Assembly (NCBI GenBank): GCA_946611605.1
Contig: CAMODU010000007.1
Coordinates: 1 to 41,053 of the forward strand
DNA length: 41,053 bases
Source of the DNA: an uncultured bacterium
GTDB taxonomy: Bacteria; Bacillota_I; Bacilli_A; RF39; UBA660
Reading direction: 5' to 3'
Below, piece after piece: positions 15,914 through 37,873 of the stretch. The notes under the pieces were generated by a model, which saw nothing but the letters and a program-made list of their open reading frames with translations, did no database searches and was not told the DNA's origin. Both the position numbers and the translations under genes were made by a program. Within the stretch, counting starts at the first letter, position 1; each line of letters begins with the position of its first letter.

Positions 15914-15935
15914 AAGTGAATATAATTATTCACTT
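15914..15935 (-). terminator. intrinsic terminator of smpB
   Basis: Nine-pair stem AAGTGAATA/TATTCACTT, 4-nt loop, T6. The TAA stop (15934-15936) overlaps the stem. Confidence 0.86.
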
Positions 15936-16359
15936 AATATCTTTCATTTCTTTCAAGGTCACGCTTCTTAATTGTTTCACGTTTATCATATAATTTTTTA
16001 CCCTTACATAAACCAATTAATAGCTTAGCATGATTATTCTTGAAATATAGTTTTAAAGGAACTAATGTTAATCCTTGTTCTTTTATTTCTTGAGATAATT
16101 TTAATATCTCTTTTTTATGAAGTAGTAACTTTCTTTGTCTTCTTTCATCATGATTAAATTGGTTACCTTCATCATATTTAGAAATAAACATATTAATAAC
16201 ATATACTTCATTATTCTTAATACGTGCATATGTATCTCTTAGATTAACTGATCCTTTTCTAATTGATTTTATCTCTGTACCAGATAATACTATTCCACAT
16301 TCTATTTCTTTAAGAATAAAGTAATCAAAATAGGCTTTTCTATTCTTAACTTCTATCAT
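15934..16359 (-). CDS. smpB: SsrA (tmRNA)-binding protein SmpB
   Basis: 141 residues. SmpB brings tmRNA to stalled ribosomes for trans-translation. The family core is clear: RKAYFDYFILKEIECGIVLSGTEIKSIRKGSVNLRDTYARI, then NHDERRQRKLLLHKKEI, LVPLKLYFKNNHAKLLIGLCKGKKLYDKRE, and a basic C-terminal tail that mimics an anticodon arm. Its ATG overlaps the rnr stop (ATGA), so translation is coupled to RNase R, its partner in degrading non-stop mRNA. No ssrA gene follows it here; hpf comes next. Confidence 0.97.
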   Translation of the reverse strand: MIEVKNRKAYFDYFILKEIECGIVLSGTEIKSIRKGSVNLRDTYARIKNNEVYVINMFISKYDEGNQFNHDERRQRKLLLHKKEILKLSQEIKEQGLTLVPLKLYFKNNHAKLLIGLCKGKKLYDKRETIKKRDLERNERY

Positions 16360-18503
16360 CTTGATTTAACCTTATCATTACTAGTTACTTCAGCAAAATC
16401 TATTTGAGAAGCTTCTTTAGAAGCACTGATACATTGAACTCTTACTCTAGTACCAATTCTAAATATCTTCTTAGAATTCTTTGCAATAACTGTATTTGTT
16501 TCTTGATCATAGTTATATATATCAGATGGCATATTTTCAAACTTTAATAAACCTTCAACTCTATTAGGAAGTTGTACAAATAAACCAAATGATTGAACAC
16601 CAGAAACTATAGCATCATATTCATCACCTATATGGTCTTCCATATAGTCTGCCATATACATATCATCTACAGCTCTTTCTAATTCATCAGCATTTCTTTC
16701 TCTATCAGATGATTGCTTAGCTATTTCATCTAAATGAGCATCCCAATAATTAATAGTCTTTTGATCAACTAAACCTTCAAAGAAATATGTTCTTAATAAT
16801 CTATGAACTTGTAAATCTGGATATCTTCTAATTGGTGAAGTGAAATGTGTATAACATTCTGATGCTAAACCAAAGTGTCCTATATTTTCTTTTTGATAAC
16901 ACGCTTTAGCCATTGATCTAATAGCTAACTTCATGATTATTTCTTTTTCTTCACCTTCAGCATCTATTTGCTCAATTAATTTCTTAAACATTTTTGGATT
17001 ATCTACATTTTTAAATTTACCAACTATTTGATGCCCTGACGAATTACAATAATCTATAAATTGTTGTATTCTATCAGGATTAGGAACAGCATGTACACGA
17101 TAAATAGATGGTAATCCTCTTACTAAATCATCATAGTATTGGAACTTTCTTGCAACAGATTCATTAGCAACGATCATGAAGTCTTCAATAACTTTTTCAT
17201 ATTCTCCTCTTTCTCTTGCAACAACATCTATTGCATGATGATTTTCATCAAATACGAATACAGGCTCAACAGTATCAAAGTCTGTTGCTCCTCTTCCCCA
17301 TCTTTCTTTTCTAATTAAATCATGCACATCTTTCATTTGTAATAATGTATCTACAAATGGTTCATATCCTTCTTCTATATCATTATTAAGTATTCTATTA
17401 CAATCTGTATAATTCATCTTCTTATTAGATCTAATAACAGATGGGAATACTTCTGAATTTATTACTCTACCTTGATAGTTAATTTCCATCATACATGATA
17501 TAGCTAATCTATCAACACCTTCATTTAATGAACATATACCATTAGAAATAATATGTGGTAATTGTGGTATTACTTTATCAGCAGGATAGTTAGAAGTAGC
17601 TCTAACTAATGCTTCTTTATCTAATGGCGAATTCTCAGTTATATAATAAGATACATCTGCAATATGAACACCTAATAAATAATTACCATCTTCAGACATC
17701 TCTAATGATATAGCATCATCTATATCCTTAGTATCTTTACCATCTATAGTAAAAATCATCTTGTCTCTTAAGTCTCTTCTTCCTTCCATATCTTTAGGAA
17801 GCACTTCTTGAGGTAATTCCTCTGCTTGTTTCATTGCATCTTCAGGAAATTCTTCAAATACATCATATTTAGCTGCTAATTCTTTAATATCCATTCCTGG
17901 ATCATCTTTATGCCCTACTTTAGCTCTAATATTACCAAAGTAATTATTACCACTGTGGATATCATCTAAAGCAACAGCTATTATTTCTCCTTCAACACAC
18001 TTACTTAATTCTTTATCATCTATAGTAATATTTATATTTGTATATTTTTTATCTTTAGGTACAAAACACTTACGTGATTTAACAACTTTTATTTCACCTA
18101 AGATATTCTTTTTATTTCTTTCAATTACTTTTAATACTTTACCTTCTGGTTTTGTTGGGTTTGATCCTAATACTTCAACTAATACTTTATCTCCATCTAA
18201 AGCACCAGCTAATAATCCTTTTTCAATATGAACATCTTTTTCAGAAGGATTTTCAGATAATAAGAATCCAAAACCTTTATCTTTTACATCAATGATACCT
18301 ATTTTAAAGTTAGTCATTTTTGAATATAATATATATTTCTTTTTTTGAGAATAGTATACATCTAATGATTCTTCTAAACTTCTAAGAGCATCGCATACTT
18401 CTTTAGTTTTTTCTACACTTTCAGCATTTAATTCTTTAGTTAGTTGTTCAATAGTTATACCTTCGTTCTTTTGTTGTAATAATTCTAATATTTGTTCTTT
18501 CAT
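16356..18503 (-). CDS. rnr: Ribonuclease R
   Basis: 715 residues. A processive 3'-5' exoribonuclease acting on structured RNA. Domain order: N-terminal winged-helix/RNase R HTH (about 1-65), cold-shock OB domains (about 65-215), RNB catalytic domain with the Asp cluster TIDGKDTKDIDDAISLE and GVHIADVSYYI, later NIGHFGLASECYTHFTSPIRRYPDL, and a C-terminal S1 domain (IGDEYDAIVSGVQSFGLFVQLP). Start ATG at 18503 follows AGGTGAT; the GTG at 18512 lies within that site. It ends with TGA overlapping the smpB ATG. Its own promoter separates it from secG, although the secG-rnr-smpB order is kept. Confidence 0.97.
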   Translation of the reverse strand: MKEQILELLQQKNEGITIEQLTKELNAESVEKTKEVCDALRSLEESLDVYYSQKKKYILYSKMTNFKIGIIDVKDKGFGFLLSENPSEKDVHIEKGLLAGALDGDKVLVEVLGSNPTKPEGKVLKVIERNKKNILGEIKVVKSRKCFVPKDKKYTNINITIDDKELSKCVEGEIIAVALDDIHSGNNYFGNIRAKVGHKDDPGMDIKELAAKYDVFEEFPEDAMKQAEELPQEVLPKDMEGRRDLRDKMIFTIDGKDTKDIDDAISLEMSEDGNYLLGVHIADVSYYITENSPLDKEALVRATSNYPADKVIPQLPHIISNGICSLNEGVDRLAISCMMEINYQGRVINSEVFPSVIRSNKKMNYTDCNRILNNDIEEGYEPFVDTLLQMKDVHDLIRKERWGRGATDFDTVEPVFVFDENHHAIDVVARERGEYEKVIEDFMIVANESVARKFQYYDDLVRGLPSIYRVHAVPNPDRIQQFIDYCNSSGHQIVGKFKNVDNPKMFKKLIEQIDAEGEEKEIIMKLAIRSMAKACYQKENIGHFGLASECYTHFTSPIRRYPDLQVHRLLRTYFFEGLVDQKTINYWDAHLDEIAKQSSDRERNADELERAVDDMYMADYMEDHIGDEYDAIVSGVQSFGLFVQLPNRVEGLLKFENMPSDIYNYDQETNTVIAKNSKKIFRIGTRVRVQCISASKEASQIDFAEVTSNDKVKSR

Positions 18504-18526
18504 AGATATCACCTTTCTCTAAAACA

Positions 18527-25092: not shown

Positions 25093-25109
25093 AAAGTAAG
25101 GTGAATAAA

Positions 25110-27680
25110 ATGAAGAAGATATTAAATATATTATCTAACTCAAAATTATATGTGATAACATTCATGTTATCATTATTTATAATATCTTTAATCTTTATTT
25201 TAAATGATGTAACTCCTTTTGGTGAGAAATCATTATTATGTGTAGATTTTTATCATCAATATGGTCCTATGTTAGGAGAGTTATATGATAAATTGCATTC
25301 AGGTGGTAACCTTATTTATTCATTTAATATGGGGTTAGGATTACCATTCTTTAGAAACTTCTTTAATTATTTATCATCACCTTTTAATATATTAATAATG
25401 TTATTCTCAAGAAATAATCTTGTTACATCATATACATTTATAATTGGTTTAAAAGCTGTAATAGCATCATGTACTTTTGTATATTTCTTATCACATAAAT
25501 TTAATACAAAGGAATTATTCTTAATACCTTTAGGAATAATATATGCATTCTCAGCTTACTATTCAGCTTACTATTGGAATATGATGTGGCTAGATGGATT
25601 AGTATTCCTACCAATTATAGCATTAGGTATTGAATATTTAGTTAAGGATGGTAAATGGAAACTATACACCATATCACTTGCTTTGATGCTTGTATCTAAT
25701 TATTTTATAGGATATATGATATGTTTCTTCTCTGTATGTTATTTCATAATATTTAATATACATGAATTACATTTTAAAAAAGGAGAAATAAAGAAAGCTT
25801 TAAAGAAGTTCTTTATTAATATAGTTAAATTTGGTTTTGCATCATTACTTGCTGGTGCATTAGTTGCTGTAGTATTAATACCTTTATTTAAATCTATTGC
25901 TTCTATATCCGCATCACATGGAACAATACCACTAACACAGTATTATAAATTTACTGTAGAAGATTATTTAAAGTTCCACTTAACTGGTGTACCAACAACA
26001 ACATTTGCATCTGATAGTATTACAGCTCCTAATATATCTGCAGGTATATTATCAGTAGCATTATTACTAGCATTTATACTTAACTTTGAAATACCTATTA
26101 AGACTAAGATATGTTATTTATTATTATTAGGAGTATTTATAATCGCATTCTTTAATCCAACACTAGATTACATACTTCATGGTATGCATGTACCAAATGA
26201 TTTACCTTATAGATATTCATTTATATATACATTTATATTTGTAACTATAGGATCATATGCAGCTGTTAATATGAAGAAACTTCCTTACATATTATCAATA
26301 GGAGGTTATGTATTCTTAATGGTACTTCTACTATCAATAACAACAGATAGTTGGACAGGATTAAATAGTAATATGATATATATAAATATGATACTACTTA
26401 CTTTATATTTTATATTCTATTCAGGTACTAAGTTTATTAGTTCATTAAAGAATGTATTCTTCTTAGCATTAGCTGCAGTAGCAGCTATAGATGTAGTAGT
26501 ATCTATTAATTATAATTGGAATATTACTCAAGTATTAGAAACATTCTATCAAGACTATAACGAAACAGAAGAATTACTACAATATGTAGATAACTATGAT
26601 AATTCAGAATTTTATAGAATAGAGAATGTACAAATGATGACTTTAAACGACCCATCATGGTACAACTATCATGGTATGACTACATTCACATCAATGGCTT
26701 ATGAAGATATGGCAATACTACAACATAAATTAGGTTTACCTGGAAATCATATTAATTCATACTATTATGTTCAAACAACACCAATATATGATTTGATGTT
26801 TGATATGAAGTACTTCATAGGTAATACTAATGATGATAAAAGATATACACCAATTAAAACTATAGCTGAAACAGCTAATCAATTTAACTATAATGTATCT
26901 TTAGGATATGGTACTAATAAAGAATTAAAAGATTGGTATTATAATTCAAGTAATCCTTTTGATAATCAAAACGATTATATAGAAAAAGCTACTGGTATAA
27001 ATAATGTATTAGAAAAGATGAGTCCTACTAGTACAAATGAAATATATAATGATGGTTCATTCTATATAGTAGAATATGAATATGATAATCCTGGAGATAA
27101 TATGTATTTCTATACTGAATCATATGCTGTAGATTATTTCATAATTGGAACTTGCTTATATTATAGAAATGATAATTATACTAACTATGAAGGAGTATCA
27201 GATAAGATATATTATTCAATGTTAGATAACTATGATGAAACTAAAATAATAAATATTAAATCTGAAGATAAAAAAGTATATGTATATGTTGGATATAATT
27301 CTTATATACCTAACGCATTTAATATGTATACTATAAATCAAGATAAGTTTAAAGATGCTTTTAATTATTTCAATAATAATAAAATGAATATAACTAAGTT
27401 TAGAGAAAGTTATATAGAAGCATATATTAATACTGATTTAGATTATGTATATACATCTATTCCTTATGATGAAGGTTGGAGTGTATATGTTGATGGTAAA
27501 AAAGTAGAAACATATAAACTTGCTAATGCATTACTTACATTCGATATTACTCCTGGAACTCATAAGATAGAATTTAAATATAGACCTAAATTCTTCTTAC
27601 TAGGATTAATAATATCAATTATAAGTATAATTATATTAATAATTAGTTTTAAATTAGATAAAAAGAAAAAGCATAAATAA
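25110..27680 (+). CDS. YfhO family membrane protein (putative lipid-linked glycosyltransferase)
   Basis: 856 residues. YfhO proteins are large GT-C-like membrane enzymes implicated in glycosylating lipoteichoic acid. The N-terminus shows the family features: CVDFYHQYGPMLGELYDKL after helix 1 with its acidic residue, NMGLGLPFFRNFFNYLSSPFN, and YYSAYYWNMMWLDGLVFLP, followed by about ten more helices up to ~475. A large extracytoplasmic domain (about 480-830, very Asn/Tyr-rich) ends YVDGKKVETYKLANALLTFDITPGTH, and a last helix with KKKKHK closes. Start ATG at 25110 after AAGGTGA; the GTG at 25101 lies in that site. Fits the tagO-type teichoic acid pathway present in the window. Confidence 0.9.
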   Translation: MKKILNILSNSKLYVITFMLSLFIISLIFILNDVTPFGEKSLLCVDFYHQYGPMLGELYDKLHSGGNLIYSFNMGLGLPFFRNFFNYLSSPFNILIMLFSRNNLVTSYTFIIGLKAVIASCTFVYFLSHKFNTKELFLIPLGIIYAFSAYYSAYYWNMMWLDGLVFLPIIALGIEYLVKDGKWKLYTISLALMLVSNYFIGYMICFFSVCYFIIFNIHELHFKKGEIKKALKKFFINIVKFGFASLLAGALVAVVLIPLFKSIASISASHGTIPLTQYYKFTVEDYLKFHLTGVPTTTFASDSITAPNISAGILSVALLLAFILNFEIPIKTKICYLLLLGVFIIAFFNPTLDYILHGMHVPNDLPYRYSFIYTFIFVTIGSYAAVNMKKLPYILSIGGYVFLMVLLLSITTDSWTGLNSNMIYINMILLTLYFIFYSGTKFISSLKNVFFLALAAVAAIDVVVSINYNWNITQVLETFYQDYNETEELLQYVDNYDNSEFYRIENVQMMTLNDPSWYNYHGMTTFTSMAYEDMAILQHKLGLPGNHINSYYYVQTTPIYDLMFDMKYFIGNTNDDKRYTPIKTIAETANQFNYNVSLGYGTNKELKDWYYNSSNPFDNQNDYIEKATGINNVLEKMSPTSTNEIYNDGSFYIVEYEYDNPGDNMYFYTESYAVDYFIIGTCLYYRNDNYTNYEGVSDKIYYSMLDNYDETKIINIKSEDKKVYVYVGYNSYIPNAFNMYTINQDKFKDAFNYFNNNKMNITKFRESYIEAYINTDLDYVYTSIPYDEGWSVYVDGKKVETYKLANALLTFDITPGTHKIEFKYRPKFFLLGLIISIISIIILIISFKLDKKKKHK

Positions 27681-28683: not shown

Positions 28684-28702
28684 TATTTTACAGGGTGGTA
28701 AT

Positions 28703-30613
28703 ATGGACAATAAGTATAAAGAAGATGTTAAAAAGTTATTATTAATATATAAATACAATCCTGATTATAGAGATGAACTATATGATAGGTTGTTTTCAAG
28801 AAATAGAAATAAACTATTAATTGCTATGTTAGATTCGTTTGAACAGGAGATATCTAACTTCTCTTATGATGGAGAAAACGATATAACATATCTTTTTACT
28901 TTATTTGAATTATTGCCTGACGTTATAAGACGTAATCAATTCTTGCAACAAACAACAATAAATAGGTTTACTGATATTCATAGAAATATAAATGATTTAA
29001 TTCATACTAAACCAACTAACTTAACTAGAGATGAAACTAAAAGATATAAACTTCTTAAGAATATATTATTTAAGATGGAAGATACAATATTAAAATTCCA
29101 TTATGAAATACCAGATGACTATGATCCTACAAAAGGTGATTATATATCTTATATAATATTTAAAACTAAGAATCTAAATCATTTTAGAAATGCTATAGAT
29201 GAATTCCCATATATTATAAATATTAAATTAAAGGATGAAATACCTTTAATAAATAAAGTATTAGAAGAATATCTTAAAGCATTAGATAAATATGTATCTG
29301 ATATTAATCTAGGCCCAATTGATGATTTAATATATTATAAGAAAGTATTTAGTATGATAATGAAATCTCCTAAATTAGCATTAAATGATGAAGATAAAGA
29401 AGTATTACTTAATATGTTAAAGGATTATACTAACAATAAAGATTTAAGTGTTGTTAGGCAAAGAGAAAAGTTATCCTACTTCGTAAACTCAATCATGTTA
29501 ACTGTACTAGGAGAAGAAGAAGATAACTCTTTAACAAACCTTAACTATGAATATGAAGTACACGATAGTTTTAAAGCATCACATAATATTGAAGCAAAGA
29601 AAATATATGTATTAAATAAAGAGTTACAAGGTAAAAGAAAAAGAAGAAAAATATATACATTTGATGGTGAAGGTGCATATGAATTAGATGATGGGTTATC
29701 CATAGAAAAAAGAGATGGTATATTTCATCTAGGAGTTCATATTGCAAATCCAATGAAATACATTCCTCATAATTCAGTATTATATGATGAAGCCAAAAGA
29801 AGAACTAGATCCCTTTACTGTGGAACTGAATGTATTCCAATGTATCCATTTAATCTATCAGGAGATTTAATGAGTTTAAATCAAGGAGAATATAGATACG
29901 CTTTATCACATTACTTTGATATAGATGCAAGAACAGGTGAGTTATTAAAATATAGTATTAAGGATGAAATAATTAAAGTTACAAGGAATTGTACTTATAC
30001 TAACTTCAATGAAGACATAGTTCACGGATCAGATGACAACAATTACTATGATACTTTATTACATCTATGTGAAGTAGCACCTATATTATCAAGAGTATAT
30101 GATGAAAACTCAGTATATCAAGAGTACCATTCAGATAACTCAAGAACAATTGGTACATCTGTTGTTGAAAAATGTATGATATATACTAATTATAATTTAG
30201 CTAAGTTATTCTCTGATAGAGGATTACCTTACATATATAGATGTCATAAAATTAATGAAAAAGAAGTAAAAGAAATAGAAGACTTACAAGCAAGAATAAA
30301 ACTTAGATCAGATGATAAATCTGTATTAAGAGATTTAGAGATGTTAAAGAATATGTTCCCAAGAGCATATTACACATTAAATAATGTAGGTCATGAAGGA
30401 CTTGGTACAACATATTACTCACATGTAACATCTCCATTAAGAAGATTTGCAGATAATCTTGCAACTGAATGCGTATTTAAATTTATACTAGATGACTATA
30501 CAAGTGAAGATATAAAACGTTATAATGAATATATAGAACAAGTATCTGAAGAGATAAATCAAAAAAGAAGAACATTAGATGATTATGAATTAACTAGAAT
30601 TCATAGAAAATAA
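28703..30613 (+). CDS. RNB-domain ribonuclease-like protein lacking OB-fold domains
   Basis: 636 residues. The C-terminal half is an RNase II/R catalytic (RNB) domain: TFDGEGAYELDDGLS near 319-333 aligns with the canonical TIDGxxTKDIDDAIS, followed by LGVHIANPM, GLPYIYRCHKINE and NVGHEGLGTTYYSHVTSPLRRFADN. Three of the four metal Asp are kept (D321, D329, D330); the second is Glu (E327). The first ~280 residues are helical and charged, without cold-shock or HTH domains, and the protein stops soon after RNB, so no S1 domain. Normal RNase R is elsewhere in the window, so this is a divergent paralogue; activity uncertain. The DUF3592-like membrane gene follows after 15 nt in the same operon. Confidence 0.85.
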   Translation: MDNKYKEDVKKLLLIYKYNPDYRDELYDRLFSRNRNKLLIAMLDSFEQEISNFSYDGENDITYLFTLFELLPDVIRRNQFLQQTTINRFTDIHRNINDLIHTKPTNLTRDETKRYKLLKNILFKMEDTILKFHYEIPDDYDPTKGDYISYIIFKTKNLNHFRNAIDEFPYIINIKLKDEIPLINKVLEEYLKALDKYVSDINLGPIDDLIYYKKVFSMIMKSPKLALNDEDKEVLLNMLKDYTNNKDLSVVRQREKLSYFVNSIMLTVLGEEEDNSLTNLNYEYEVHDSFKASHNIEAKKIYVLNKELQGKRKRRKIYTFDGEGAYELDDGLSIEKRDGIFHLGVHIANPMKYIPHNSVLYDEAKRRTRSLYCGTECIPMYPFNLSGDLMSLNQGEYRYALSHYFDIDARTGELLKYSIKDEIIKVTRNCTYTNFNEDIVHGSDDNNYYDTLLHLCEVAPILSRVYDENSVYQEYHSDNSRTIGTSVVEKCMIYTNYNLAKLFSDRGLPYIYRCHKINEKEVKEIEDLQARIKLRSDDKSVLRDLEMLKNMFPRAYYTLNNVGHEGLGTTYYSHVTSPLRRFADNLATECVFKFILDDYTSEDIKRYNEYIEQVSEEINQKRRTLDDYELTRIHRK

Positions 30614-30628
30614 AAAGGTGGAGATTAT

Positions 30629-31321
30629 ATGTATAATATTGATGTATCTAATATTAAGAAAGATAATAGAATAAATTACATATTTCTTATTATAGGAATA
30701 ATAGCATTTATAGTTATGGCATCCATAGCATTCATAATTGCAAATAATGAAAATAAGCTTACTGCTTCAACTCAGTCATACAAAACTGAATATGAAGAAG
30801 TAGATGGTGATGATGGTACTATGTATAAGGCAGCATATTATTACAAAGTTGATAATAAAGAATATATATGTAGTCCTGACTTTAGGTCATCAAACAAACC
30901 AAGTGATAAGAGTAATACAATATATTACAATCCTAGTGATCCTAAACAATGTAGTACAAGTTCATTAAGAATATTCTTAGTTGCCATGTCTGCATTATTC
31001 CTAGTACCAATAGTATTTACTTTAATAGGATTATTTGGAATGAGACGTGTTAGCAATAGAATTAAAAAGATGAATGAACTTGCTACATATGGAAAACTAA
31101 TTAGAGGTTTAGAATTTGAAACTATACCATCAGGAACATATATAAATGGAAGAAATATTCCTCAAATAAAAGTTAAATATCAAATGCCAGATGGTACAAT
31201 ACACGAACTTATATCAGATAAAAGATATGATATGGTAGATGGGGCATATGGTAAAACAGTTGATTTATTAATTGATGAAAATGATCCATCAACGTATTTT
31301 ATAGATTTCAATATACAATAA
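30629..31321 (+). CDS. DUF3592-like membrane protein, two helices
   Basis: 230 residues. Helix 1 (about 17-39), an outside domain with KTEYEEVDGDDGTMYKAAYYYKVDNKEYIC and YYNPSDPKQC, then helix 2 (about 112-135), and a cytoplasmic tail with a second beta-like repeat of the same kind (GRNIPQIKVKYQMPDGTIHEL ... LIDENDPSTYFIDF). The 'Y-x-P-x-D/N-P' phrase is typical of DUF3592. Function unknown. It is co-transcribed with the RNB gene and ends at a strong terminator. Confidence 0.82.
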   Translation: MYNIDVSNIKKDNRINYIFLIIGIIAFIVMASIAFIIANNENKLTASTQSYKTEYEEVDGDDGTMYKAAYYYKVDNKEYICSPDFRSSNKPSDKSNTIYYNPSDPKQCSTSSLRIFLVAMSALFLVPIVFTLIGLFGMRRVSNRIKKMNELATYGKLIRGLEFETIPSGTYINGRNIPQIKVKYQMPDGTIHELISDKRYDMVDGAYGKTVDLLIDENDPSTYFIDFNIQ

Positions 31322-31346
31322 AAAAGAAGCGTTATGCTTCTTTTTA
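31322..31346 (+). terminator. intrinsic terminator of the RNB/DUF3592 operon
   Basis: Ten-pair stem AAAAAGAAGC/GCTTCTTTTT, 5-nt loop, T-rich tail. It starts right after the TAA. Confidence 0.9.
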
Positions 31347-31516: not shown

Positions 31517-32530
31517 ATGGATTATTTTGAATTACAAGATTTTAATAAAAGAATCGGATTAAATACAGATTTAAAAAATATTTCTAAAAAAATATGTGAT
31601 GTTTATAACTTGGGAGAATTTATTTCAAATGAATTAATTGCCATTGGTTATGAGGATTATAATTACTATTTAATCACTTCAAAAGGAAAATATTGTGTTA
31701 AAATTTTTAGTAATTTTAGAACTAAAGATGATATTAAAAATTATTTAGAACGAATCAAGATGGTTGCAAATAGTAGTACAAATTCACCTAAACCTTTAAT
31801 TATAAATAATGATATTTCACTATCTTTAACTTATGAAAACAATCATTATGATATTTGTGTGTTTGAGTATATTGATGGAAAAAATTATTTTGAATTACAT
31901 GAAAAACCTAGTAATGAAGAAATTAAAGAATTAGCAAAACAAACTGCTATAATTAATAATCTAGATATTAAACCAAAGTTTATTTATGATGCTTGGGCTA
32001 TTATAAACTTCGAAGAAGAATATAAACAAAAAAGAAAATATCTTCCAGAAAAATATCAAGGTGAATTTGATAAATTGTTAAAAGAATTAAAAAATATTAA
32101 TTTTGATAAATTACCCAAAGCATTTGTTCATGGTGATATTATTAACACAAATGTAATGAAAGACAATAATTCTAAAATATGGATTATAGATTTTGCAGTT
32201 TCTAATTATCTACCTCGAATAATAGATTTAGCAGTTATTTCTTGTAATATGTGTTTAGATGAAATTTCTAAGAATAAAACATATGAAAATATTAAATTGC
32301 TATTAAGTGAGTACAACAAATATAATAAATTAACGGATTATGAATTAGAAGTATTTGGTATATTTTATAAATTGGCTAATGCAATGCATATTTTGCAACC
32401 TATATTTATTGCTAAAACAGAAGGAGACTCAGAAGAAAATCAGTATTGGTTAAATGAAGGAATAGTAGGATATTCATTTAGCGATGATGAAAAGTTTTCA
32501 AAAATATTAAGCAAAAAGGAAAGCTATTAA
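31517..32530 (+). CDS. Aminoglycoside phosphotransferase (APH)/choline kinase family protein
   Basis: 337 residues. An N-terminal lobe has the ATP lysine in YCVKIF (K62) and a hinge CVFEYIDGKNY. The C-lobe holds the catalytic loop FVHGDIINTNVM (H205, D207, N212) and the Mg-binding IIDFAVSN (D225). The APH fold covers antibiotic, choline, homoserine and other small-molecule kinases, so resistance is only one option. Isoleucine is coded mostly by ATT here, whereas core genes favour ATA, suggesting recent arrival. Own promoter. A frameshifted tail of 24 codons follows; the chain may be truncated. Confidence 0.83.
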   Translation: MDYFELQDFNKRIGLNTDLKNISKKICDVYNLGEFISNELIAIGYEDYNYYLITSKGKYCVKIFSNFRTKDDIKNYLERIKMVANSSTNSPKPLIINNDISLSLTYENNHYDICVFEYIDGKNYFELHEKPSNEEIKELAKQTAIINNLDIKPKFIYDAWAIINFEEEYKQKRKYLPEKYQGEFDKLLKELKNINFDKLPKAFVHGDIINTNVMKDNNSKIWIIDFAVSNYLPRIIDLAVISCNMCLDEISKNKTYENIKLLLSEYNKYNKLTDYELEVFGIFYKLANAMHILQPIFIAKTEGDSEENQYWLNEGIVGYSFSDDEKFSKILSKKESY

Positions 32531-32685: not shown

Positions 32686-33804
32686 TCATTTTTTATGAAC
32701 TCCTTTATTGGTATCATGTATAAGATTATCAGATTCATCATATAAATTATTTATCATTTTTAAATTATATCCTGCTTTTTGTAGTTGCTCTATGTATGTA
32801 TTTATCTCCTCTTTTGAAGTTGTATGAGAGCTTCTTGCATTTTCATTCATTTTATCTATTATTTTTCTTATTTTTGGTAATGTTTTTTCTTTAATAGATT
32901 CTATTTGTAATATATCTTCGGTGTAACACATATCTACTAATTTAACAAGTTCTTCATATTCATCTTTTCCAACCCTTGAAACTAATTCATTTTTATTATC
33001 AGATATTCTTGAAATTTTAATATATTTTTTAAACTGTGCATAAAATTCATCTATCAAATAAAAATTATATTTATAAGGATATAGAAAGGGAATATTTAGA
33101 CAAAATGAAGAAAAATCTCCTCCCTTTGATTTAAAAATTTTTTCTATTTCCTCACTGGCTTTTTCATTAAGCAATTCTTCAACATTTCTTTCTCCACTGT
33201 TTTTATGAAAAACATCTACACTAAGACCTGTTTTTTGAACAACACCAATATGATTGTTATCTTCTGTTATAAAAGCAAGGGCATCTCTTGTAATAGCATG
33301 ATTAATTTCGTGAATTATTGCTCTTTCATTTAAAGCTAATATTTGAAATGAAATTAATCTGTTCATATTATTTATATTACCATAATTATAACTACGGGGA
33401 GCAGATTCACTTAACGATCTAAATAACCAATTAATAATAGAGTTATTGTTGACAATAGAGTCATTTGTCATACCGATTAAATTATCAGGTAATTTAATTG
33501 AATATTTTATTTTTTTAAGTATTTTTTCCAAAGGATGTTTTCTACGAGAATTACTAAAGTTAATAAAATCAGTATACTTATCTAAATTATCTATTTTAGG
33601 TAAATATTCATTTATTACAAAATCAATTGTGCTCCAATCTATGTAATAAATAAAAGTAATTTCATTATATCTTTTTTCAATTATATATCTAAACTCATCA
33701 CCATAATACTCAACGAATGATTCTATTAATATTTTTTTATTGTTCTCTAAAGACTGTTTAATTAAATGATTATATTTTTCTTTTAGTTTGTCGTATTTAG
33801 TCAT
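32686..33804 (-). CDS. Putative HEXXH zinc metallopeptidase, 372 residues
   Basis: I do not recognise a named family, but RAIIHEINHAITRDALAF carries a clear HEXXH (H165-E166-xx-H169), and 45 residues later RNVEELLNEKASEEI has NExxSE (E214 as possible third ligand), the thermolysin-clan (gluzincin) arrangement. No signal peptide or membrane helix, so cytoplasmic or exported by another route. The N-terminal 140 residues are charged and helical, the last ~90 helical with Lys/Glu repeats. It ends in TGA. Own extended -10 promoter. Lying between an APH-family gene and a relaxase, it is probably element cargo. A toxin, an anti-repressor protease or a housekeeping role are all open. Confidence 0.72.
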   Translation of the reverse strand: MTKYDKLKEKYNHLIKQSLENNKKILIESFVEYYGDEFRYIIEKRYNEITFIYYIDWSTIDFVINEYLPKIDNLDKYTDFINFSNSRRKHPLEKILKKIKYSIKLPDNLIGMTNDSIVNNNSIINWLFRSLSESAPRSYNYGNINNMNRLISFQILALNERAIIHEINHAITRDALAFITEDNNHIGVVQKTGLSVDVFHKNSGERNVEELLNEKASEEIEKIFKSKGGDFSSFCLNIPFLYPYKYNFYLIDEFYAQFKKYIKISRISDNKNELVSRVGKDEYEELVKLVDMCYTEDILQIESIKEKTLPKIRKIIDKMNENARSSHTTSKEEINTYIEQLQKAGYNLKMINNLYDESDNLIHDTNKGVHKK

Positions 33805-34012: not shown

Positions 34013-34048
34013 AAAGATGATGGTTTAAAGTGATAAACCATCGTCTTT
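34013..34048 (+). terminator. strong plus-strand terminator, overlapping the mobV end
   Basis: Fifteen-pair stem AAAGATGATGGTTTA/TAAACCATCGTCTTT with one wobble and a 6-nt loop, then TTCTTTATC on the plus strand. The mobV stop (34025-34027) lies in it, so it may serve both strands, though the minus-side T-run is weak. Confidence 0.75.
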
Positions 34049-35359
34049 TTCTTTATCTTTTTTATCTTTATAAAATTCTTCAGCATATTCATCCATTTCA
34101 TCATTAATATGTTTAGTTGCTTTTTCAATTTCCTTTTTATTAAATAAATTAAATCTTCTTCTTGATTCCATTTCTTTTTTTTCTTTTTTCTTAACTTCTG
34201 GATCATATTGTTGTTTGAAATAATTAAGATTAATATTATTGTAATTAAATAATCTATTAATCAAATTTTGAATAAATTCAGGAAGTTTTTTAATTATTTT
34301 ATTTAAGTGATAGATAAGATAATCATTTTTTTCTTTTAAATCATTATATCTACTTTCATATTGATAATTTAATCTTTTTAAATCATCATTTTCCTCTTTT
34401 AATTTTTTATTTTCATCTAATAACTGATTTTTTGACTTAATAACAATTTTATTATTAATTTTTTTCTTTTTATCTATTTCATCTTTTATATCATCTTTAT
34501 CTTTGTTAAGTTTCGTTATTTGCTTATTAATAGTTTCTTTATTATCTTCTAAATCAGACACTTTATTTTCAAGATTAGATATTTCTTGTTTAAGACCTTT
34601 TACTCTTTCATTAAAGAGTTTTCTTTCGTATGATGTAATATCTCTGTTTTTACCTTTTTCTTTTTCTTTAAGTTTGGAATCTAAACCATAGGCAATATTA
34701 AATTCATTAATACATCTTTCTCTCATTTTGTCTTGGATAACTACTAATGATTCTTTTGTGAAAATAGAAGTTTTACCAACTTGTCTTGATAAACTAGTTT
34801 TACAATTTTCTTTAACTGGAACTCCAACTATATGCATATGTGGAGAGTGTTCATCAAAATGAATAGTAGCATTTGCTATATAGAAGTCTGGAACTATTTC
34901 TTTTAAATCTTTAAGTTGTTGTTCAAATACTTGTGTCATTTGATATTTATATTCTAAACTTTTCTCATCCCAGTATTCCATATTACCAAGTTCAATAACA
35001 ATTTCACAAGCAAGATCATGCTTTGTATCATTTGCAATCTTATTAAAGTAGTTATCAATAGTTCTATCATCTCTAGTTTGTTTATTATTGTATTCAATTC
35101 TTGCTTCCTCAAATAATTCTAGATATAAATCTTTAACATCTTTAACAATATCATTTGAACCTTTAATAGTTTTAATTAATTCTTGATTATTATCATATTG
35201 TCTTAAATTATGATGATTAACTTTTCCTAATTGCTTAACATTTTGAATAGCATTATTATTCTTTGATGTAGTACCTGATGGAGTATTCTTTGCTTCTTGT
35301 CTTGCTTTAATAGATTTGTTTTTATCATTACCTAAATGTAGTGAATAAGATAATTCCAT
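34025..35359 (-). CDS. MobV family relaxase (Mob/Pre plasmid mobilisation protein)
   Basis: 444 residues. MobV relaxases nick oriT of small mobilizable elements. Motif I-like KVNHHNLRQYDNN (HNLR at 50-53) and the metal-binding HFDEHSPHMHIVGVP (H167, E170, H174, H176) match the family. C-terminal to the catalytic half, about 240-350 is a long coiled coil (LENKVSDLEDNKETINKQI...), and the last 80 residues are basic. Start ATG follows AGGAGGTG. The last codons form part of a terminator-like hairpin. The non-coding segment upstream is the candidate oriT. Needs a conjugative helper, none of which is in the window. Confidence 0.92.
   Translation of the reverse strand: MELSYSLHLGNDKNKSIKARQEAKNTPSGTTSKNNNAIQNVKQLGKVNHHNLRQYDNNQELIKTIKGSNDIVKDVKDLYLELFEEARIEYNNKQTRDDRTIDNYFNKIANDTKHDLACEIVIELGNMEYWDEKSLEYKYQMTQVFEQQLKDLKEIVPDFYIANATIHFDEHSPHMHIVGVPVKENCKTSLSRQVGKTSIFTKESLVVIQDKMRERCINEFNIAYGLDSKLKEKEKGKNRDITSYERKLFNERVKGLKQEISNLENKVSDLEDNKETINKQITKLNKDKDDIKDEIDKKKKINNKIVIKSKNQLLDENKKLKEENDDLKRLNYQYESRYNDLKEKNDYLIYHLNKIIKKLPEFIQNLINRLFNYNNINLNYFKQQYDPEVKKKEKKEMESRRRFNLFNKKEIEKATKHINDEMDEYAEEFYKDKKDKEKDDGLSL

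Positions 35360-35802: not shown

Positions 35803-37873
<2,071 letters not shown>

What the first reader, a model, noticed from the sequence alone, without database searches (positions are those of the whole stretch)
28703..30613. RNB ribonuclease without OB-fold domains and with one catalytic Asp replaced by Glu
The catalytic core of RNase II/R is fused to a ~280-residue helical N-terminus instead of cold-shock domains, and there is no S1 domain. The TKDIDDAIS motif reads AYELDDGLS, so the second metal Asp is Glu. True RNase R is also present. With a DUF3592-like membrane protein in the same operon, it may be a specialised or membrane-linked RNase, or a non-catalytic RNA-end binder.
Basis: partly seen in the sequence, partly recalled or inferred. 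Interest (0 to 1): 0.62.

Follow-up and report, generated by a model that had tools for sequence, protein, structure and literature searches.

The report
RNase R relative with helical N-terminus
This gene encodes a relative of the RNA-degrading enzyme RNase R that has no OB-type RNA-binding domains and carries a roughly 300-residue all-helical front part instead; it belongs to an unnamed protein family found here only in one family of small-genome uncultured Bacilli, in which most members keep the catalytic site while several distant relatives have lost it.

Summary
ORF 28703-30613 (636 aa) has one recognisable domain, RNB (315-588), a 300-residue N-terminus predicted as 13 helices without strands, and no S1. 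RNase R with both cold-shock domains and S1 sits in the same window. The D-to-E change is real and is a family trait: E in 35 of 42 close members and 43 of 90 overall. It replaces the Asp that contacts the RNA 3'-OH (E. coli D207), not a metal ligand. The three Mg-binding Asp plus Arg500 are kept in 83 of 90 members. Yeast mitochondrial Dss1, an active exonuclease, has the same DxxxxxELDD, so the change does not argue for inactivity. The N-terminal domain occurs in about a quarter of sampled genomes of the window's family and in none outside it. In 23 of 41 loci the gene follows dnaI; divergent dnaI-adjacent relatives in other genera have lost catalytic residues. The DUF3592-like neighbour is not a conserved partner. 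Best reading: a clade-specific, OB-less RNase R paralogue, probably an active 3'-5' exoribonuclease on unstructured 3' ends, targeted by a helical scaffold; some relatives look like pseudonucleases. Activity and substrate are untested.

The parts
28703..30613 (+). OB-less RNB protein, 636 aa
   Evidence: ORF; RNB domain by Pfam; 90 distinct family members
28703..29602 (+). N-terminal all-helical domain, residues 1-300 (13 helices, no strands)
   Evidence: AlphaFold2 models; no Foldseek match with E<=0.001; profile found only in the window's family
29645..30466 (+). RNB catalytic domain, about residues 315-588
   Evidence: Pfam PF00773 E 4e-52; VIA-align Z 35.7 to B. subtilis RNase R over model residues 292-634
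29663..29692 (+). Active-site motif D321-x5-E327-L-D329-D330 (E. coli D201, D207, D209, D210)
   Evidence: alignment with E. coli RNase II and R
29681..29683 (+). Codon of E327, at the position of E. coli D207
   Evidence: E in 43 of 90 family members, D in 9, other in 38; D in 22 of 22 RNase R
30440..30442 (+). Codon of R580 (E. coli R500)
   Evidence: 89 of 90 members keep Arg
30503..30610 (+). C-terminal helix of the RNB fold; the protein ends here without S1
   Evidence: model helix 601-635; 52-68 residues from D584 to the end in all 42 aligned members
28692..28698 (+). Shine-Dalgarno-like AGGGTGG
   Evidence: sequence
30629..31321 (+). DUF3592-like membrane protein, possibly co-transcribed in this genome only
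   Evidence: 15-nt gap; terminator-like hairpin 31321-31345; not a conserved neighbour
16356..18512 (-). RNase R of the same genome (comparator)
   Evidence: OB_RNB, CSD2, RNB and S1 by Pfam; SmpB next to it at 15934-16359

Best explanation
A clade-specific paralogue of RNase R that lacks both cold-shock domains and S1 and has a helical, probably alpha-solenoid, N-terminal domain instead. The RNB core threads a single-stranded RNA 3' end to a Mg site formed by D321, D329 and D330 with R580; E327 takes over the 3'-OH contact of the usual Asp. It most likely removes nucleotides 3' to 5' (inferred). Without CSD/S1 it should not unwind duplexes, so it probably trims unstructured 3' ends or RNAs brought to it by a partner bound to the helical domain (inferred). 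Shown: architecture, family, active-site conservation, phylogeny, restriction to one bacterial family in the samples searched. Inferred: activity, direction, substrate, partner.
For: RNB fold predicted intact (Z 35.7). In 90 distinct members D201 is kept in 90, D209 in 85, D210 in 87, R500 in 89, all four in 83. D201, D209 and D210 are the Mg ligands, and Dss1, an active enzyme, has the same DxxxxxELDD (PMC8097288). OB replacement is precedented in active members: Dss1 (beta-barrel, WH, HTH) and DrII (HTH replaces both CSDs and leaves an open surface that can take pre-tRNA) (PMC5758563). N-domain without strands in two models. The family separates from RNase R on a branch with SH-aLRT 99. The N-domain profile hits 100 of 386 genomes of the family, about 90 after removing linker-only hits to RNase R, and gives only a linker hit outside it in a class sample. 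dN/dS about 0.18 overall, similar in both halves.
Against: No activity data. The segment that carries Phe358 in E. coli RNase II is missing in 43 of 44 aligned members, and E390 and E542 are not conserved. The D207 position is E, D, V, I, L, C, S or R across the family. Divergent dnaI-adjacent relatives have lost catalytic residues while the gene is retained, so a non-catalytic function may be what is conserved. The full model has pTM 0.54, so the placing of the two domains is not known.
Confidence: 0.62

Rival explanations
1. A pseudonuclease: the RNB tunnel binds RNA 3' ends without cutting and the helical domain works as a scaffold, comparable to fungal Ssd1.
For: Divergent relatives next to dnaI have changed D209 or D210 (KENV, REDA, LEDA, KEQA, KEDA in place of xDDx), and R500 is replaced in three; the 3'-nucleotide clamp segment is missing; the D207 position is relaxed.
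Against: The window protein and 83 of 90 members keep all three Mg-binding Asp and Arg500; Glu at this site occurs in active Dss1.
Confidence: 0.22
2. A membrane-linked RNase working with the DUF3592-like protein.
For: 15-nt gap and a terminator-like hairpin after the second gene in the window.
Against: Not adjacent in any other member examined; the homologue lies elsewhere or is missing in relatives; in the closest relatives the RNB gene is followed by a convergent gene.
Confidence: 0.03
3. A tRNA 3'-trimming or other processing enzyme with an open RNA surface like DrII, rather than a general decay enzyme.
For: DrII, with both CSDs replaced by HTH, has an open surface that can take pre-tRNA (PMC5758563); a separate full RNase R is present for general decay.
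Against: No HTH was identified in the N-domain; no RNA data.
Confidence: 0.13

Closest known systems
RNase R (TIGR02063; B. subtilis 8cdu/8cdv, M. genitalium 7dcy)
   Same: RNB fold (Z about 34-36, 20-26% identity), Mg-binding Asp, Arg500, Tyr253
   Different: No CSD1, CSD2 or S1; D207 to E; clamp segment lost; scores 158 bits against an equivalog cut-off of 598
Dss1, yeast mitochondrial degradosome nuclease
   Same: DxxxxxELDD active site; OB domains replaced at the N-terminus
   Different: Dss1 has beta-barrel + WH + HTH and keeps S1; here 300 residues of helices and no S1. The shared Glu is probably convergent (inference)
DrII of Deinococcus radiodurans (2R7D)
   Same: RNB core with both CSDs replaced by a helical element (RNB Z 28.6)
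   Different: Short HTH there against a 300-residue helical domain here
Ssd1, fungal pseudonuclease (7AM1)
   Same: Repeated active-site decay within an RNB lineage resembles the divergent relatives here
   Different: Ssd1 keeps CSDs; the window protein keeps the metal site

Membership tests
RNB superfamily (PF00773) | RNB domain above the curated cut-off | tested here: met
   177.9 bits, cut-off 29.3; structure Z 35.7
RNB superfamily (PF00773) | Mg-binding D201, D209, D210 and R500 | tested here: met
   D321, D329, D330, R580
RNB superfamily (PF00773) | Second Asp (D207) of DxxxxxDxDD | tested here: not met
   DGEGAYELDD; the second Asp is Glu. The same variant is conserved in Dss1, so this is not treated as excluding
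RNB superfamily (PF00773) | 3'-5' hydrolytic exoribonuclease activity | not testable with these tools
   needs biochemistry
RNase R | TIGR02063 equivalog cut-off | tested here: not met
   158.2 of 597.85 bits
[quoted passage not shown]
   no Pfam match; all-helical N-terminus; chain ends at the RNB C-terminal helix
RNase II (E. coli type) | TIGR02062 / PRK05054 equivalog cut-off | tested here: not met
   59 of 641.9 and 74.1 of 542 bits
Dss1 | DxxxxxELDD | tested here: met
   identical pattern
Dss1 | C-terminal S1 domain | tested here: not met
   chain ends at residue 636
DrII-like | N-terminal HTH in place of CSDs | tested here: inconclusive
   helical N-terminus, but no significant fold match
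Ssd1-like pseudonuclease | Loss of Mg-binding Asp | tested here: not met
   all three present

The most novel reading that the evidence does not exclude
One lineage of small-genome Bacilli carries a bacterial counterpart of fungal Dis3L2/Ssd1: an OB-less RNB paralogue, often at dnaI-X-thrS, whose helical scaffold has a conserved non-catalytic role while the nuclease site was lost repeatedly; the window's member would be one that still has a metal site.
Probability: 0.3. Interest if true: 0.75.

Novelty: new variant of a known kind. Interest (0 to 1): 0.5.

Why it matters
OB folds are regarded as standard RNA-binding parts of RNase II/R enzymes. A large natural family without them, with an intact metal site and a common Asp-to-Glu in its core clade, can show what the RNB barrel does alone and how substrates are brought to it. 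Relatives graded from intact to decayed active sites in one bacterial lineage would make nuclease-to-pseudonuclease evolution directly testable.

Tried and rejected
(1) Hidden OB folds at the N-terminus: rejected, no strands in two models. (2) Known fold for the N-domain: Foldseek best E 0.059; VIA-align best Z 9.6 to HEAT/ARM-type solenoids, below the level (about 13) that means more than a common arrangement for helical models. (3) YtxC (PF08812), which from memory lies between dnaI and thrS in B. subtilis: no YtxC in 58 genomes of the family; homology of YtxC to the N-domain was not tested. (4) Link to the DUF3592-like gene: not conserved. (5) Viral copies: 8 IMG/VR contigs encode RNB proteins; all read D at the D207 position and none has the helical N-terminus. 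(6) A first residue tally used a regular expression that forced D201/D209/D210; it was redone without it. (9) Literature searches found no description of this family; the library is open-access only.

Full report
Observation. The ORF at 28703-30613 is real, preceded by AGGGTGG. Pfam sees only RNB, residues 315-588; NCBIfam gives RNase R at 158 bits against a cut-off of 598. The same genome has three RNB genes: RNase R in the window with OB_RNB, CSD2, RNB and S1 next to SmpB, the present gene, and a 447-aa protein on another contig (L003).

Active site. Alignment with E. coli RNase II and R and 22 RNase R sequences maps D321, E327, D329, D330, Y372, Y432, E489 and R580 to D201, D207, D209, D210, Y253, Y313, E390 and R500. 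RNase R has Asp at D207 in 22 of 22. In 42 close members the position is E 35, V 3, D 2, I 2, while D321, D329, Y372 and R580 are invariant and D330 is kept in 41. In 90 distinct members it is E 43, D 9, other 38; D201 90, D209 85, D210 87, R500 89; all four in 83. PMC8097288 states that the first, third and fourth Asp coordinate Mg, that the second contacts the 3'-OH, and that Dss1 has a conserved E there, taken as tolerated in active enzymes. So the change is conservative and not at a metal ligand. The segment carrying Phe358, partner of Tyr253 in clamping the 3' nucleotides (PMC3293843), is missing in 43 of 44 members; a changed end product is expected (inference).

Architecture. AlphaFold2 gives 13 helices and no strand for residues 1-300 in the full model (mean pLDDT 74.7, pTM 0.54), and only helices in the domain alone (69.5, two sequences). 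The RNB part superposes on B. subtilis RNase R with Z 35.7 and rmsd 4.0 over 334 residues. The N-domain has no significant Foldseek match; its best VIA matches are HEAT/ARM-like (Z below 10), which for helical models may be only a common arrangement. The relative placing of the domains is not known.

Family and spread. The N-domain profile matches 100 of 386 genomes of the window's family; about 90 remain after removing short linker hits to RNase R of around 700 aa. In 149 genomes of the class the only hit outside the family was such a linker hit. A sheep-rumen Bacilli MAG carries a 59% identical copy. On an RNB tree built without column 327, the 90 members and 24 RNase R/II sequences fall on two sides of a branch with SH-aLRT 99; the 447-aa third gene lies inside the family, and it also matches the N-domain profile at E 2e-7. 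dN/dS against the 73% identical relative is about 0.18 overall, 0.17 in the N-domain and 0.20 in RNB (synonymous sites are near saturation).

Context. Of 41 loci, 23 have a DnaI-like helicase-loader gene directly upstream on the same strand and 21 have thrS within a few genes downstream; several have a DnaB_2 gene upstream of dnaI. In the window's genus the gene lies elsewhere, beside lipid kinase, YfhO and TypA genes. Reading downstream of dnaI in 39 genomes, chosen mostly because they lacked an N-domain hit, eight had an RNB-type gene next to dnaI. One is a full RNase R (L259); one (L263) has an N-domain match at E 3e-8; in L266 an OB-less gene sits beside a full RNase R. The eight OB-less proteins of the other seven loci show changed catalytic residues: KENV, REDA, LEDA, KEQA or KEDA in place of xDDx, loss of R500, or no recognisable motif. 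Adjacent genes do not prove a functional link, and an ancestral position is an adequate explanation.

DUF3592-like gene. The 15-nt gap and the hairpin at 31321-31345 make co-transcription plausible here, but relatives do not share the pair.

Conclusion. The protein is a member of the RNB superfamily but not of RNase R, RNase II or Dss1 by their defining features (DrII-type membership is inconclusive). It most likely works as a Mg-dependent 3'-5' exonuclease on unstructured ends with a helical recruiting domain. The pseudonuclease reading is the main rival and fits some relatives better than this protein.

Noticed in passing
L003:1363-2706 (own genome contig C13): Third RNB protein, 447 aa, with a 5-residue insertion inside the active-site motif (TIDYVKYTSGLKMLFDDAF); groups inside the OB-less family.
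   Followed up: partly
L263, L266, L268, L271, L275, L279, L290: Divergent RNB-type genes directly downstream of dnaI in other genera, with lost or changed catalytic residues; candidate bacterial RNB pseudonucleases.
   Followed up: partly
L266: OB-less RNB gene and a full RNase R gene side by side after dnaI, compatible with an origin by tandem duplication.
   Followed up: no
L102:3770-5107: IMG/VR contig with a 446-aa RNB protein that has a short N-terminus and Asp at all four positions; not close to the window family.
   Followed up: no
window 34025-35359 and 35803-37761 (- strand): Relaxase-like (Mob/Pre-type) protein and a large serine recombinase, judged by eye from the translations: probably an integrated mobile element at the right end of the window.
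   Followed up: no
window 31517-32530 (+): APH-fold kinase (PF01636) with weak similarity to ThrB-type homoserine kinase.
   Followed up: no
window 32686-33804 (- strand): 372-aa protein with HEINH, a zincin-like motif, and no Pfam family above its cut-off.
   Followed up: no
window 25101-27680 (+): YfhO/PgfM-like multi-pass membrane protein, conserved near the RNB gene in the genus.
   Followed up: no
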